Made by a program: the position numbers and the translations under genes. Below are positions 41,116-57,198 of a stretch of 64,000 bases of DNA, in pieces (within the stretch, counting starts at the first letter, position 1; every line of letters starts with the position of its first letter). Origin of the DNA: Laburnicola sp. R22_1 (Eukaryota > Ascomycota > Dothideomycetes > Pleosporales > Didymosphaeriaceae); the NCBI GenBank assembly GCA_014281115.1, contig JACONQ010000014.1, forward strand, positions 744,001-808,000. The letters run 5' to 3'. The notes under the pieces were generated by a model. The model worked only from the letters and a program-made list of their open reading frames with translations, was not told the DNA's origin and made no database searches.

Positions 41116-41128
41116 ACTTCCTTTCCTA

Positions 41129-41224
41129 TGTGTTGTTAAATTAACTACCTAGGGGTAGAACGACAAAGGCTTTCATCTCAAATAACATGACAAAAAAAGC
41201 AGAGCCCCCTGCTTAGTAATCAAA
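41129..41224 (+). mobile_element. short mobile repeat, copy A, with 13-bp target duplication
   Basis: A 96-bp sequence is flanked by identical ACTTCCTTTCCTA at 41116-41128 and 41225-41237. It begins TGTGTTGTTAAATTAACTAC and ends with a small AGCAG/CTGCT stem, then CTTAGTAATCAAA. The same sequence occurs at 57089-57198 and, inverted, at 52594-52698, 55832-55950 and 56540-56660. This is the least decayed copy. It holds no ORF and no obvious Pol III B box. Confidence 0.85.
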
Positions 41225-41335
41225 ACTTCCTTTCCTAAATTGCCGGTATGAAAGTAGTTTGAAGACCATGCGAACGCCTTTTATCTATTCCTATCATGCA
41301 TTTTGTGGTATCATATCATACACAGCTCATCGGGT

Positions 41336-48800: not shown

Positions 48801-50913
48801 ACGTGTCCGTGCGCGTGATGCGCCACTTCGCGTGATGGGCCACCCACGCCAAAACAGCTCTGCGAGAAACGAGGCTGTAGAGCCACACACAGTAGCTATT
48901 ATCACTAGATTTTATAGCGGAGTACTATGTTAATGCTTGCAATTAACCTGCACTACTTGTATTTACCTGGAAGCTTGACGTTGCGGCCGCACCGCGTGGC
49001 CTTAGGTGGAGCTGCTGATGCGGCACCTGAGGCCTCCTCAGTAGCTACAGCGTCAACCACACGCTTCTGACGCTTATTGCTCTGCGTAGATAGCTGCGAG
49101 GCCTTTCTCTTACCCTTTTGGGTTGATTGTAGAGCTTTTACTGCGCCACGAGCCGCTTTCTGGCGAGCGCGCTCTGCTGCCTTCTCAGCCTTCTCCTTCT
49201 CCCTAGCTACCTTGGCCGCCTCCCGCGCCACACGCTTCTCCTCTGCAATTTTCTCCTTATACAGTTTAGCTGCCTTCCTTAACTTAGCTGTCTCCGCTTT
49301 TTGAAGCTTCTGCTCCTTCTCCTCTTGCTCTTTCACAGACTGGCGTACACGAGCCTCCCGAATCTTCCTTGGTGACCAGATGACTGCTCCCCCATGGTAC
49401 TCTTGACGTCGCTGAAGGTCAAGCGGCTTGCCCTTCTTCCTATGCTTCTTCTTGACTGATAGTGCCTCCTTGAGCCCGCTGATTTCATGGCGAAGTAGCT
49501 CGTTCTGAACTGAGATATGGTGGAGTGAGCGGCTGAGCTTCTGCGCGTCCTTGCTGCTCTGGTCTTCTACTGCAGATCGTACAAGGCGATCTAGTTTACG
49601 CCAGTCAGATCCACTGAGTACTGACTTAGAGCTCTCTCGCGATCCCTGCTCATCTTGGGTGGTTTGGGTGAACCTTTTGAGTATAACCTCTGGGTTGAAT
49701 GGTGAGATACCCGTTGCTTCAAAAGACTTAAGTATCGTCTCCTCCTTAAAGGAGCTCGTCCAGGCCTTCCAGAATAGAGGGAAGAAGTCGCCCTTCTTAA
49801 CAGGGATGAGGCCTTGGCTCTTATGGAGGTGGGTTGATAGCTCAGCTGAGTACGCAGTTGAGAGAGGCTTAAAGAGCACCACATCAAGCGGCTGAAGCGT
49901 GTGAGTTGAATGAGGAGGAAGTATAGCTAGGAGGATCCTATTCTGATCGCAGTAGTCAATAAAATCCATAGTAACGTGAGATCCATGGCCATCAAGGATA
50001 AGTAGTCGGTAAGATCGTCGAGCTTTTGCCTTGGTGTAGCGATCAAACACCTGTTCGAGCCAGGCAAGGCCGATATCGTTGTTGGTCCAGCCTGACTGCG
50101 ATGAGGTGACGTGTACCAAGTGCTCTCCTGCCTTGATGTCCTCTACCCAGCTTGATTGTATGCCGTTGTTGGTAGCCTGATAGATGAGGCTTGGCGGCAA
50201 GGCTGATCCGTCGGCGCAGACGCATGCTAAGATGGTAATCCATTCACGAGAGCCATCTTGGAGAGCTGCTTTAACTTCCTTCTTCTCCCACATTCGCCTG
50301 CTGAACACCCGTTTCGATCTACCAATAATACCAATCAGGCAGCCCTTCTCATCCATATTGTATGTGTGACGAGGCTCGATGTCGTATTCCTTGATTTTGT
50401 CACCTAGGAAATCAAAATACAGGCTGTATTTATCCCCTAATTCGGCGTTGTGGCGATTGGCGTCCATACCCGTTGCCCATTGAGAGATGAGATGGATGTC
50501 GTGTTTGTTGATGAAGCGCGTAACCCAGCTCTCGCTCACGGGCTCCTTCGCAATTGTAGACGCGAAATTCTGTACCATCTCTCTTGTAGGAGGCAAGTGA
50601 CGTGCTGTAAGTCCTTCTATATAGTTAACAAGCTCTGCCTCCTGTGGCGGAGTAAGCTTCTGTTGGTTGATGATCTTGGACGCGTGCGGCTGTGTTGTAG
50701 CTTGGTGCCTTCGTGTTAAAGTTGAGCGAGAAACACCATACTTTTTAGCTATTTTTCGGTACGAGAACTGTTCGCCAGAATTTAGCGACGTTATATCTGC
50801 AACGGCATCATCGATTGGAGCCATGATGGTGGAGTTACGAGGTTGCGAAGTTTGAGTGTTTTGGGCGTGGGTGGCCCATCACGCGAAGTGGCGCATCACG
50901 CGCACGGACACGT
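48801..50913 (-). mobile_element. intact pogo/Fot1-type DNA transposon
   Basis: 2113 bp. Perfect 50-bp inverted ends (48801-48850 and 50864-50913) are flanked by TA at 48799-48800 and 50914-50915. Each end contains two copies of CGCGTGATGSGCCAC 2 bp apart, likely transposase-binding repeats. The single transposase ORF is open. Perfect ends, an intact ORF and no RIP-type stops point to a recent insertion, in contrast to the two decayed relatives at 21.9-26.1 kb. Confidence 0.95.
48953..50824 (-). CDS. pogo/Fot1-type DDE transposase
   Basis: A single intron-free 623-aa frame. Residues 1-45 form an HTH_psq domain (SYRKIAKKYGVSRSTLTRRH). Residues about 55-130 form a CENP-B/Tc5-like HTH (ARHLPPTREMVQNFASTI, SESWVTRFINKHDIHL). 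The DDE_1 catalytic core shows Asp158 (YNMDEKG), Asp278 (LILDGHGSH) and Asp314 (QPLDVVLFKPL). The last two are separated by 35 residues, giving DD35D as in pogo/Fot1. The C-terminal third has GGAVIWSPRKIREARVRQ and a long basic coiled coil, then KGKRKASQ and GRNVKLPGKYK. It should bind the inverted ends and move the element by cut-and-paste at TA sites. All three catalytic residues are present, so activity is plausible. Confidence 0.94.
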   Translation of the reverse strand: MAPIDDAVADITSLNSGEQFSYRKIAKKYGVSRSTLTRRHQATTQPHASKIINQQKLTPPQEAELVNYIEGLTARHLPPTREMVQNFASTIAKEPVSESWVTRFINKHDIHLISQWATGMDANRHNAELGDKYSLYFDFLGDKIKEYDIEPRHTYNMDEKGCLIGIIGRSKRVFSRRMWEKKEVKAALQDGSREWITILACVCADGSALPPSLIYQATNNGIQSSWVEDIKAGEHLVHVTSSQSGWTNNDIGLAWLEQVFDRYTKAKARRSYRLLILDGHGSHVTMDFIDYCDQNRILLAILPPHSTHTLQPLDVVLFKPLSTAYSAELSTHLHKSQGLIPVKKGDFFPLFWKAWTSSFKEETILKSFEATGISPFNPEVILKRFTQTTQDEQGSRESSKSVLSGSDWRKLDRLVRSAVEDQSSKDAQKLSRSLHHISVQNELLRHEISGLKEALSVKKKHRKKGKPLDLQRRQEYHGGAVIWSPRKIREARVRQSVKEQEEKEQKLQKAETAKLRKAAKLYKEKIAEEKRVAREAAKVAREKEKAEKAAERARQKAARGAVKALQSTQKGKRKASQLSTQSNKRQKRVVDAVATEEASGAASAAPPKATRCGRNVKLPGKYK

Positions 50914-52470: not shown

Positions 52471-52593
52471 TTATATATATTACGTAATATTATTATATAA
52501 ATATATAGTATTAATAATATAGTATATAAAATTTTAAAAAAGTTTTAATAATAATAAAGTAGTTAAAAAGTTATTAAAGTTTATACTTTTTAA

Positions 52594-52698
52594 TTGCGCT
52601 CTTTTTAATTACTAAGTAGGGGCTCTGCTTTTTTATATTATATTATTTGAGATAAAAGCCTTTATTATTCTACTCCTAGGTAGAATTAACGCCACATA
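52594..52698 (-). mobile_element. short mobile repeat, copy C (inverted), 12-bp duplication
   Basis: A 105-bp reverse-complement copy of the 41129-41224 repeat is flanked by TATACTTTTTAA at 52582-52593 and 52699-52710. It lies inside the AT-rich block, so it inserted after that block arrived. The A-rich 3' end is longer than in copy A (TTAGTAATTAAAAAGAGCGC). Confidence 0.8.
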
Positions 52699-52710
52699 TA
52701 TACTTTTTAA

Positions 52711-53170: not shown

Positions 53171-55315
53171 AGCTGTTTAGATACTATAGGTATACATACA
53201 CGCTTAAAATTTTTTCTAATATATAGGCTATACTATAGCCTATAGTATAGCCTATAAGATATAAGAATATAGCTACTCTTTAAGCTATAGCGTAGCTATA
53301 ATTATATATATTTTAGCCTATAGTTTAACTTTATAGTAGCCTTTACTATATAAAAGCTCTACTTTTTTATTATTAAATATCTTTATTATATAAAAATTCT
53401 AATTATGGTTAAGTTTGTACTATATATAAAGAAAAGTAAAATAAAAAATATTACAATCTAGTATCTAGTATATAGTAGTAATAATAAAATATATATAAAA
53501 TAATAATAATTTAATTATTAATAATATATATAGTAATAGTATTAATAATAGTTAAAAGTAAAGTTATTATTAATAATCTTTATTATATAAAGATTCTAAC
53601 TAAGGTTAGGTCTATACTATATATTAGAATTATATATATATATAAGTATCTAAAGTACCTAAGTAGTTTTATATAAGACTATATATATTTATATACTACA
53701 TATACTTAGAGTGTACTAGTAATCCTACTTTTTCTTAGTGTATATATATATAAAGTTAGTTAATAGTTATAAAATTTTACTTTTACTTTTTATTTATATT
53801 ACTAGTATATCTAAAGTAGCTAAAATAGCTAAAATAGCTAAAATATTCTAAATACCTATACTATTTATAAAATACTAATTAATAAGTAAATAAAACTTTT
53901 TAATTAGCTAAAATTAAAAAAACTTAGTAATCTACATAGTAAGCTTTAAAAAAATTAGAATTTTTTTAAAGTATAAAGTTAAAGTCTTTTACTAGATAGT
54001 AATTACTAGTTAATATAATAATATATTAAAAAAGTTTTAAGTAAGTATAAGTATTTAAAGTATTTAAGTAACTCTAAATATATTTATATATATTTATACA
54101 CTAAATATACTTAGAATATACTAATAATATTACTTTATTTTTAGTATATATATATATAAGGTTATATAAAAATATATATCTATACTACTAGTGCACTTAG
54201 AGCACCTAGAGTACCTAGAGTGTATAGAGTATATAGAGTACCTATACTATTAAAATAATATTAATTAATTAGTAAATAAAGCTCTTTAATTGGCTAGAAT
54301 TTAAAAAAGCTTAGTAAGTAACTTACTAAGCAGCTTACTAAGCTTTAAAAAGATTTTTAAAGTATAAAGTTAAAGTCTCTAACTAGATAGTAATTACTAG
54401 TTAATATAATAGTACTAATTACTAGCGTATTATATAAAACTTCTACCTAACTCTAAATTCTAGATTTTATAGGTTTAAAAATAGAAAAAAATTAGTTTTA
54501 TAATTATTTAAAAGAATTAAATTAGGCGAAAATTAGTAGCTTAGTAAAGAACACAATTTTAACAAGTTTAAACTTTAATAACTTTTTAATAACTTTATTA
54601 TTATTATAACTTTTTTAATTAGCTTACTAAATATCTTTATTAAACTTTTTTTTAGTTTAAGGTTAAAGTAAATTAAAATATAAAGTTATTATATACTACT
54701 ATATATAGTACCTTATTGTAATTAAAGACTAACTTTAAATATACTAATATAATAATAGTATAAACTTACTTACTTATACTCTATACTTTAAAAGTTTTTA
54801 GTCTTAATATAAAGTTTACTTACGCTTTATATAGTATCTAAATTATTACTATTATTATTATTAACTATTCTTACTTACGCCGCTATATAGCGTACTTACT
54901 TAGATAAGCTAATATAGCTATAATAGCTAAAAGAATCTTATAAATTTATATATTACTTTTATTATACTAGAGATTATTAATAAATATTTTATTTTCTACT
55001 TTATACCTTTCTTTTTAGATTCTATTACTAATAAGAAGTAATTTTATCTACTAGAGTAAAAATATAGTTTTTTTAGTTTTTATAAACTAAATAAACTACT
55101 AATCTAGCTAGTATATAAGAAGTACTTTATAGATAGTTAGGTATACTAGACTTTTATAAATAATTATCTTATAAATAAAATAGAACTCTAGTGTTATTAT
55201 CTTAGTAGTAATAGTGTAAATCTTTAGTATATACTTTTTAGTAATAGTAAGTACTTTAGAAATAATATTAATATCTAAATAAATAGTAGGGCATAGAGAT
55301 ATATATAGAGAGATA

Positions 55316-55512
55316 TGTTAGGGATTCCTGAGGTGCGGCGCGCCCGGCGGAAGGTTCCGCCGAGTCCCGGAACCTTACCCGATTAGGCATTAGCGCCTCG
55401 GCTACGTGTGGGTATATAAGGCAGCTGTTAACAGTCTTTATACGCCACCTCGATATCTTAGTAAAATTAACTTCTTGATTTCAACCTTTGATGCCTTGAG
55501 TGATCCCTTATA
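55316..55512. mobile_element. solo LTR, GC-normal island in AT block
   Basis: About 197 bp of normal GC content interrupts the AT-rich block. It starts TGTTAGGGAT and ends ATCCCTTATA, a near-perfect terminal inversion with the final CA changed to TA. It is flanked by GATA on both sides (55312-55315 and 55513-55516). A TATA-like GGGTATATAAGG lies at about 55406-55417. This is the structure of a solo LTR, with 4-5 bp target duplication, inserted after most RIP had occurred. Confidence 0.7.
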
Positions 55513-55831
55513 GATAGTAGTAAATTTATTAAAAATAGTCTTAATATAGTAATAAAGTAATAAATATATATTAAGTATATATTACTTTTATTTTATTTGT
55601 AAAGTAGTATATACCTATTAATATATTAACTTATATTATTTATAATAATCTAAATAGTAGTTTATAACTTAGAATAGTAAAAAAAATAACTATAGTATAG
55701 TAGCGCTAAAGCTATTTTATCCCTTCTCTAAGTTCTAAGTAGCCTCTTTATAAAAAATTTGCTTATAGAAGTAACTTTATACTAAGACTACTAAGCTTAC
55801 TTAGTAGTTTAAACACGCATTTTTATAATTA

Positions 55832-55950
55832 CCTTTTTATCCTTTTTTAATTACTAAGTACGGGGCTTTACTTTTTTATTATATTATTTAAGATAAAAGC
55901 CTTTATTATGCTATTCCTATGTAGTTAATTTAACACTATACACACATAAC
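55832..55950 (-). mobile_element. short mobile repeat, copy D (inverted)
   Basis: A reverse-complement copy of the short repeat, more decayed than copies A and C. Borders are approximate and the flanking duplication is not clear. Confidence 0.65.
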
Positions 55951-56539
55951 TTTTTTAAAAATTTATATAATAACTAGTAAAATAAAGAATTTTTTATTAA
56001 TTACTAACTAATTATATAATAAATATAGTATCTTTAAATTAAATAATTAAAGACTAGTATTTTCTCTATAAATCTATTAAAAAATTAAAATTATAGCTTT
56101 ATTAGTAAAAAGGTTATAAAGCTTTAAAAAAATTACCTATTTAAACTATTTATATATATTTACGCATCTCTAAGTATTTTTATACTAGTAAATTACTTAT
56201 ATAAGAATATATATATATGCGTATATCTGCGTATAGTTAAGTAGTCTCTTTAGATAAAACTTTCCTAATATATATAAAGAGGAGTAAAATAAAAGATACT
56301 ATAACCTAGTACCTAGCACATAGTAGTAGTAACAAAATATATATAAAATAATAATAATTTTATTATTAGTGTTTGGTATAATAGTATTATTAATAGTAGT
56401 TAAAAGTAAAATTATTATATAAAAGTATTTTAAATTATTTAATATTAAAATATAAAGCTAAAAGTAATTGTACTTTATTAAGCTTTTATTTTATAGTAAT
56501 ACTTATTATCTATTATATAGTTTATACTATAGATTATAT

Positions 56540-56660
56540 GCTTTTTTTTCTTTTTACGCCTTTTTTAATTACTAAGTAGGGGCTCTACTTTTTTGTTATG
56601 TTATTTAAGATAAAAGCCTTTATTGTCCTATCCTACCTCTAAATAGATAAAATAACGCTA
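56540..56660 (-). mobile_element. short mobile repeat, copy E (inverted), 12-bp duplication
   Basis: A 121-bp reverse-complement copy is flanked by TATAGATTATAT at 56528-56539 and 56661-56672. Read on the minus strand, its 3' end is the longest A-rich tail of the five copies (AAAAAAGGCGTAAAAAG then AAAAAAAAGC). Confidence 0.78.
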
Positions 56661-57088
56661 TATAGATTATATAGTAGTGTAATAAGTAGTTACTTATCTT
56701 TTAGCTTATTGTCTAGTTTAAGATTAAACGAAAATAGATAGTCTAGAAAGTCTAGACTTTAGAATTTTCTTTATCTTATTAATCACGTGTTATTACGTAA
56801 TTTTAGATAAAGAACTATTAGTTTCCTAAAGTAGAACTTAATAACTTTCTAGCACGTGTATAGTTACGTAAATTTATCTATATAAATAAGCCAAAACTCC
56901 GAGTTAGAAAAATTTATCTAAGTTGGTTATCTTACTATCTATCTTACTAAGAATACTATCTACCTTATTATATAAGTATTTTATACTTATTATATTACTA
57001 CCTACCTACCTTCTACTATATTACGTAATCTATTTCGATATTTAATATTATAAGTAAGGCCTTATAACTAGCTAAAAGGTTATACTAT

Positions 57089-57198
57089 ATGTTGTTAAAT
57101 TATCTACCTAGGAGTAGAATAACAAAGGCTTTTATCTTAAGTAATATAATAAAAAAAGAAGAGCCCCCTGCTTAGTAAATAAAAAGAGGGTAAAAAGG
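57089..57198 (+). mobile_element. short mobile repeat, copy B, right border of AT block
   Basis: A direct-orientation copy ends with AGAGGGTAAAAAGG, immediately followed by the right 13-bp border repeat at 57199-57211. Its left side has no matching repeat. That implies the matching border is the distant one at 52084-52096. Confidence 0.75.

What the first reader, a model, noticed from the sequence alone, without database searches (positions are those of the whole stretch)
41116..41237. Tiny (about 96-121 bp) mobile repeat with 12-13 bp target duplications
A 96-bp sequence at 41129-41224 sits between identical 13-bp repeats. Four more copies occur in the AT block (52594-52698, 55832-55950, 56540-56660, 57089-57198), two of them with their own different 12-bp flanking repeats. 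Copies share a fixed 5' start (TGTGNNGTTAAATTAAC), a small AGCAG/CTGCT stem and an A-rich 3' end of variable length. Long variable target duplications plus an A-rich tail point to mobilisation by target-primed reverse transcription. The sequence is shorter than normal SINEs and shows no clear B box, so it may be an undescribed minimal retroposon or a deletion derivative of a larger element.
Basis: partly seen in the sequence, partly recalled or inferred. Interest (0 to 1): 0.78.

Follow-up and report, generated by a model that had tools for sequence, protein, structure and literature searches.

The report
Stubs of a 1.1-kb fungal retroposon
The tiny repeat is real and mobile, but it is the tail end of a 1.1-kilobase non-coding retroposon in an ascomycete fungus, copied in the opposite direction to the one first proposed, and its copies are mostly broken off after roughly 100 to 150 bases.

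Summary
In detail: a 96-bp repeat between perfect 13-bp duplications, four more copies in the AT block, and hundreds in the 64-Mb genome (480 exact matches to its 17-base end, 0 for the reversed control). Target-primed reverse transcription is well supported, but strand and unit are wrong. TA follows it in 69 of 78 copies (background 17%), so the specific nick (TTA^TA) lies there; the "A-rich variable 3' end" is the truncated 5' end. Parent elements are about 1.1 kb (14 of 16 loci picked for length share one 5' boundary), RIP-mutated, and without a credible Rfam or Pfam match. One lies in the window at 54619-55946 with its own 12-bp duplication. Five inspected paralogous empty sites are ungapped and hold one duplication copy. 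At least 28 of 38 copies in a length-unbiased sample are under 170 bp, with a 5'-end hotspot at a T-run; four loci carry 222-239-bp internally deleted forms sharing one 3' joint. The enzyme donor was not found: 11 of 22 LINE-type loci lack this tail, and one young LINE differs in target. New member of a known kind; modest interest.

The parts
41129..41224 (-). 5'-truncated copy (96 bp) of the retroposon; fixed 3' end at 41129
   Evidence: 40 scored genome copies 97-100% identical; among the 40 read with flanks, similarity runs on variably beyond the 41224 end and stops at the 41129 end
41116..41128 (.). target site duplication, copy next to the element's 3' end
   Evidence: 13 of 13 identical to 41225-41237; 4 swapped-flank controls score 3-6
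41225..41237 (.). target site duplication, copy next to the truncated 5' end
52594..52698 (+). 5'-truncated, RIP-altered copy with 12-bp duplication TATACTTTTTAA at 52582-52593 and 52699-52710
54619..55946 (+).
   Evidence: homology of 14 of 16 long loci starts at window 54594-54623; duplication
56540..56660 (+). 5'-truncated, RIP-altered copy starting GCTTTTTTTT (at the hotspot), duplication TATAGATTATAT at 56528-56539 and 56661-56672
57091..57190 (-). 5'-truncated copy without recognisable duplication
   Evidence: best score 3, controls 3-7

Best explanation
Shown from sequence: a fixed 3' end ...GTTAATTTAAC(AA/GC)CACA(CA)0-3; insertion at TTA^TA with target duplications of mostly 7-15 bp; no loss of target DNA in five inspected empty sites; variable 5' truncation; long copies with a common 5' start; four internally deleted mini copies. 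Inferred: a reverse transcriptase and endonuclease borrowed from a LINE nick the target strand 5'-TA^TAA, prime on the RNA's 3' end, and usually stop about 90-150 nt in, often at the edge of a U-run. Occasionally the enzyme jumps at TAGCAGTTC to about 77-97 nt from the RNA's 5' start and finishes, giving mini copies. Long copies were heavily mutated by RIP and short ones less so, which would explain why the best-preserved copies are stubs.
For: Fixed versus variable end: 40 best-matching loci plus 40 places not chosen by length. Nick at the fixed end: TA follows CACA(CA)n in 69 of 78 copies against 17% of flank dinucleotides; information above 1 bit at four positions there and at most 0.36 bit at the other junction, for 44 copies. 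Duplications: 44 of 78 copies beat 12 controls each, 15 of the 44 are 11 bp, range 7-25, the three longest in simple repeats; 12 of 21 long and mini copies beat all swapped flanks. Empty sites: 16 of 44 joined flanks gave a match across the joint, 13 after discounting three (see report); 5 ungapped alignments were inspected and hold a single duplication copy. Long element: 14 of 16 loci share the 5' boundary. Non-coding: lightly altered copy L125 (1090 bp) has no frame above 105 aa, no credible Pfam match in 8 of its 10 frames of 50 aa or more, no Rfam match. Truncation: 42 short copies with supported duplications span 88-152 bases, 16 of 42 in one 5-base bin. Mini forms: 4 loci, one 3' joint, three different 5' joints. 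RIP: TA/AT 1.69-1.90 in 14 long copies against 1.22 in L125.
Against: No enzyme donor found: the tail is absent from the stretches fetched downstream of 11 of 22 LINE-type loci; by eye no listed tail lies within 20 kb downstream of the five LINE-type loci on contigs C1-C4, but only 100 of 480 tails were listed. 34 of 78 short and 9 of 21 long or mini copies fail the strict duplication test. The young (TAC)n LINE shows TA in only 6 of 20 junctions. The mini forms could be DNA deletions; L028 and L116 have no duplication. The 96-nt RNA end is not unusually stable (z -0.37).
Confidence: 0.88

Rival explanations
1. One reading: an independent minimal retroposon (about 96-121 nt), sense strand as in the reader's listing, mobilised through its A-rich 3' end by an L1-like enzyme.
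For: A-rich variable end and long duplications are present.
Against: The sequence-specific nick lies at the other, fixed end; copies extend continuously into a 1.1-kb element with its own 5' end and duplications; L1-type specificity would show at the A-rich junction, where information is at most 0.36 bit.
Confidence: 0.03
2. Short copies come from a separate short RNA (a processed fragment, or a SINE-like transcript starting near the GCGC/T-run boundary or at TAGCAGTTC), not from truncation during reverse transcription of the long RNA.
For: 5' ends cluster: 16 of 42 in one 5-base bin and 6 of 42 at -103 or -102; a GTTCGAAC core resembling a B box lies at the TAGCAGTTC start (sequence; B-box consensus recalled).
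Against: Starts spread over 88-152 bases with more than one hotspot, each beside a T-run; T-runs of 5-8 would stop polymerase III (recalled rule); long and mini copies coexist; Rfam finds no tRNA or 5S.
Confidence: 0.12
3. A MITE or other DNA-transposon derivative with long duplications.
For: Short, numerous, low divergence.
Against: One end is variable, duplication lengths vary, strong sequence preference at one junction only.
Confidence: 0.02
4. Introner-like element (known from this fungal class, recalled).
For: About 100 bp, many copies, ascomycete host.
Against: No fixed GT...AG borders on either strand by inspection; the ends are CACA and a variable T-rich start, and there are 1.1-kb parents.
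Confidence: 0.01

Closest known systems
WEIRD/MINE and Mg-SINE of Magnaporthe grisea (PMC2104539; abstract, first part of Results and the template-switching section read)
   Same: 1.1-kb non-coding RNA copied by a LINE machinery, 10-20-bp duplications, template jumps at preferred sites with predicted hairpins, 5'-truncated 3' parts
   Different: WEIRD was found only fused to LINE or SINE ends; here the 1.1-kb RNA carries its own 3' end and moves alone, and no LINE with that end was found. Sequence similarity to WEIRD was not tested (no sequence at hand).
AfuSINE2 families of Aspergillus fumigatus (PMC5063351; passages read)
   Same: Non-autonomous, 4-14-bp duplications, presumed LINE donor
   Different: tRNA-headed, 140-493 bp, low copy; one has a 3' end similar to a Tad-type LINE. 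No tRNA head and no LINE-shared end found here
SINE with a tRNA-Ser head in Pyrenophora tritici-repentis (PMC3538342; passages read)
   Same: Short interspersed element in a pleosporalean fungus
   Different: tRNA-headed, 25 tRNA copies; no tRNA match here
5'-truncated LINE copies in general (recalled)
   Same: Fixed 3' end, variable 5' end, target duplications, dispersal as stubs
   Different: No reverse transcriptase gene was found in the parent

Membership tests
Non-LTR retroposon inserted by target-primed reverse transcription | Variable-length target duplications | tested here: met
   44 of 78 copies beat 12 controls each; mostly 7-15 bp
Non-LTR retroposon inserted by target-primed reverse transcription | Fixed 3' end, variable 5' truncation, nick specificity at the 3' end | tested here: met
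Non-LTR retroposon inserted by target-primed reverse transcription | Clean empty sites with one duplication copy | tested here: met
   5 ungapped paralogous empty sites inspected; 16 of 44 with a match across the joint, 13 after discounting
LINE | Encodes reverse transcriptase and endonuclease | tested here: not met
   L125 frames at most 105 aa, no credible Pfam match in 8 of 10 frames; the other long copies are too RIP-altered to judge
SINE | tRNA-, 5S- or 7SL-derived polymerase III head | tested here: not met
   No Rfam match at E up to 1 in L115, L118, L125, L126
SINE | Polymerase III transcription | not testable with these tools
   T-runs in the sense strand argue against it (inference)
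SINE | 3' end shared with a resident LINE | tested here: inconclusive
   Absent from fetched stretches of 11 of 22 LINE-type loci; the rest not examined
WEIRD/MINE | Sequence homology to WEIRD | not tested
MITE | Two fixed ends and fixed-length duplication | tested here: not met
   Variable 5' end and duplication lengths

The most novel reading that the evidence does not exclude
The family persists in a RIP-proficient lineage because its RNA makes the reverse transcriptase stop or jump at built-in sites, so that most new copies (about 90-240 bp) fall under the length at which RIP recognises repeats, while full-length copies are destroyed. The element would be a RIP-evading retroposon whose active source is a mini form or an unseen unmutated copy, served by an unidentified LINE with TTA^TA specificity.
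Probability: 0.15. Interest if true: 0.65.

Novelty: new member of a known kind. Interest (0 to 1): 0.4.

Why it matters
It corrects what looked like an unusually small retroposon: the unit is a stub of a non-coding 1.1-kb element, with the strand reversed. The family offers a natural record of where a fungal reverse transcriptase stops and jumps, and of how copy length relates to RIP damage. If the RIP-evasion reading were true it would show a mobile element adapted to a genome defence by being copied badly.

Tried and rejected
LINE partner: stretches downstream of 11 LINE-type loci (of 22 whose reverse-transcriptase match spans 750-790 bp, among 150 scored of 662 candidates) hold no trace of this tail (best E 0.11; nothing at E up to 0.1 in L120-L122). 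In 7 of the 11 a tail was recognised: (ACCA)n in L067, L068, L072, L073, L074 and (TAC)n in L070, L071; in the other 4 (L065, L066, L069, L120) I did not identify the LINE's end. The young (TAC)n LINE, a candidate because it also has GTTAAT near its end, was tested by target site: TA in 6 of 20 junctions against 69 of 78 here, so it was set aside. Homology of the long element to LINE parts: tblastx best E 0.027, blastn none at E up to 0.5. Structural RNA origin: nothing at a family cut-off around the 96-bp copy, nothing at E up to 1 in four longer loci. Printed match: an exact-letter text search listed six papers, unrelated by title. RNA folding: the 3' unit is ordinary (z -0.37); in the 1090-nt fold a helix pairing 147-174 with 896-917 encloses most of what the mini forms lack, but without a shuffle control, so no weight is put on it.

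Errors and limits of mine: one search searched L119:1-130:-, the flank of that locus and not the element; it found another repeat. In one search the automatic length of some long copies is too high (L093 and L099 look short on inspection), so '28 of 38 shorter than 170' is a lower bound and the 'long' group of ten is impure. Rows dropped before counts: L079 and L108, the same places as L047 and L045; the second copy inside L031 was not counted. The 16 long loci were taken from the top of a search with a query lying in the long part, so they say nothing about how common long copies are.

Full report
WHAT IS THERE. The 96-bp repeat at 41129-41224 lies between two identical 13-bp sequences. The window is part of a 63.9-Mb, 26-contig genome. 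Window genes (GYF, Spc24, lysophospholipase, sulfate permease) are eukaryotic. A saccharopine dehydrogenase frame is 90% identical over 44% of its length to that of Lojkania enalia, the best hit with an organism name; the best hit of all, 96%, is unnamed. The host is therefore probably a member of the Pleosporales or near them (placement of those names recalled). A DNA search gave 2314 first-look candidates, of which 40 were scored, all 40 at 97-100% identity. The last 17 bases, read on the minus strand, occur 480 times exactly and the reversed pattern never.

WHICH WAY ROUND. I read the 40 best copies with 300-bp flanks and the first 40 listed places of the 17-base end, a sample not chosen by length. 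In both, the TGTG end is constant and the other end varies. Duplications that score at least 7 and beat all 12 swapped-flank controls were found in 44 of 78 distinct copies; 15 of these 44 are 11 bp and the range is 7-25, the longest three in simple repeats. Directly after the fixed end (CACA plus 0-3 further CA units) comes TA in 69 of 78 copies; TA makes up 17% of dinucleotides in the flanks. For the 44 copies aligned on the duplication start, four positions carry more than 1 bit (consensus TTA^TA), while the other junction carries at most 0.36 bit per position. In target-primed reverse transcription the sequence-specific first nick is at the element's 3' end (established knowledge of R2 and L1, recalled). 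Hence the fixed end is the 3' end, and the sense strand of the 41129 copy is the minus strand.

EMPTY SITES. Sixteen of 44 had at least one match running across the joint. Three of these should be discounted: L014 matched its own place held twice, and L081 and L111 matched through an older copy of the family in their left flank. Of the remaining 13, some matches are gapped or weak. Five ungapped ones were inspected (L036, L043, L089, L090, L097): in each the homologous place holds one copy of the duplication, exact in L043, L090 and L097 and with differences in L036 and L089, and no element.

THE PARENT. Copies that extend further share up to about 1.1 kb. In 14 of 16 loci fetched with long upstream DNA, homology starts at nearly the same place, window 54594-54623. 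These loci were picked with a query in the long part. They are full-length copies beginning near GGTCGGCTTGCCGAACGCC. Of 21 long or mini copies tested, 12 have duplications that beat every control; the nine failures are L028, L049, L053, L057, L058, L060, L115, L116 and L125, some of them with perfect but short repeats. One full-length copy is in the window, 54619-55946, with duplication TAACTTTTTTAA and a 193-bp repeat inserted in it. Fourteen long copies from 13 loci are RIP-altered (TA/AT 1.69-1.90; (CA+TG)/(AC+GT) 0.21-0.60). L125 is lightly altered (1090 bp, GC 0.48, indices 1.22 and 1.01); its longest frame is 105 aa, Pfam finds nothing credible in 8 of its 10 frames of 50 aa or more (best E 0.078), and Rfam finds nothing at E up to 1 in L115, L118, L125 and L126.

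LENGTHS. In the length-unbiased sample at least 28 of 38 copies are shorter than 170 bp; the other ten were called longer, of which L093 and L099 look short on inspection. Among 42 short copies with supported duplications, the 5' ends lie 88-152 bases from the 3' end; 16 of 42 fall in one 5-base bin at the boundary between GCGC and a T7 run, and 6 of 42 lie at -103 or -102 beside a T5 run. The simplest reading is that the enzyme leaves the template at the edge of U-runs. This is inference.

MINI FORMS. L028, L115, L116 and L117 (222-239 bp) join the first 77-97 bases to the last 142 or so. The 3' joint is TAGCAGTT in all four; the 5' joint is at three different places. They were the 4 of 40 scored matches (155 candidates) that span the joint. 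L009, a simple truncated copy, starts at the same TAGCAG. L117 has a supported duplication; L115 has a perfect 9-bp one, although one control scored 10; L028 and L116 have none. Repeated jumping of the enzyme at one stop point would explain this. M. grisea LINE chimeras show jumps at preferred sites with predicted hairpins upstream, but there without microhomology (PMC2104539, section read), whereas here one to two bases are shared at some joints. DNA deletion is not excluded.

RIP AND LENGTH. Short copies in the unbiased sample carry 4.8 C-to-T or G-to-A differences from my reference in the last 96 bases, long ones 9.1 (28 and 10 copies). Of the 40 copies nearest to the query, 38 are short. 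A Mycosphaerella graminicola study states that RIP typically acts on sequences above 400 bp and that families under 200 bp lacked the bias (PMC4522978, passages). Against an adaptive reading, a LINE in this genome has at least 23 copies 98-100% identical over 220 bp, so RIP may be weak now or the LINE recent.

DONOR. Not found. Stretches downstream of 11 of 22 LINE-type loci were examined; in the 7 where a tail was recognised it is (ACCA)n or (TAC)n, and none of the 11 carries this 3' end. The (TAC)n LINE differs in target (TA in 6 of 20 junctions).

KNOWN OR NEW. It works like a LINE-served non-autonomous retroposon. It fails the SINE head test and the LINE coding test. I found no description in the held library by these searches: fungal SINEs, the Magnaporthe chimeras, RIP and short copies, Dothideomycete SINEs, exact letters; only PMC2104539, PMC5063351, PMC3538342 and PMC4522978 were opened, in part. 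Repeat databases such as Repbase were not available, so the family may be catalogued there.

Noticed in passing
window 55318-55510: A 193-bp repeat (TTAGGGAT...ATCCCTTA, with a TATA-like box) inserted in the RIP-altered full-length element; 39 other full-length places at 97-99% identity among 40 scored of 82 candidates, itself not RIP-altered; solo-LTR-like or MITE-like.
   Followed up: partly
L067, L068, L073: Three copies of one LINE family end in (ACCA)n and are followed by related coding-like sequence, which suggests insertion at a fixed site of another repeat.
   Followed up: no
L070, L071, L128-L147: A young LINE with a (TAC)n tail: at least 23 copies 98-100% identical over 220 bp, in a genome with many RIP-altered repeats.
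   Followed up: partly
window 48953-50878 (-): A 641-aa stop-free transposase-like frame with DDE_1 and Tc5-type HTH domains.
   Followed up: no
L119 1-105 (G000 C6:830560): Another repeat beside the 430-bp deletion form; 39 further places among 40 scored of 60 candidates.
   Followed up: no
3' end of the element, many loci: Two common end types, AACAACACA and AACGCCACA, plus rarer GTAGATTAATTAAC, GTAGATAAAATAAC and GTAGAATTAAC forms, which look like subfamilies.
   Followed up: no
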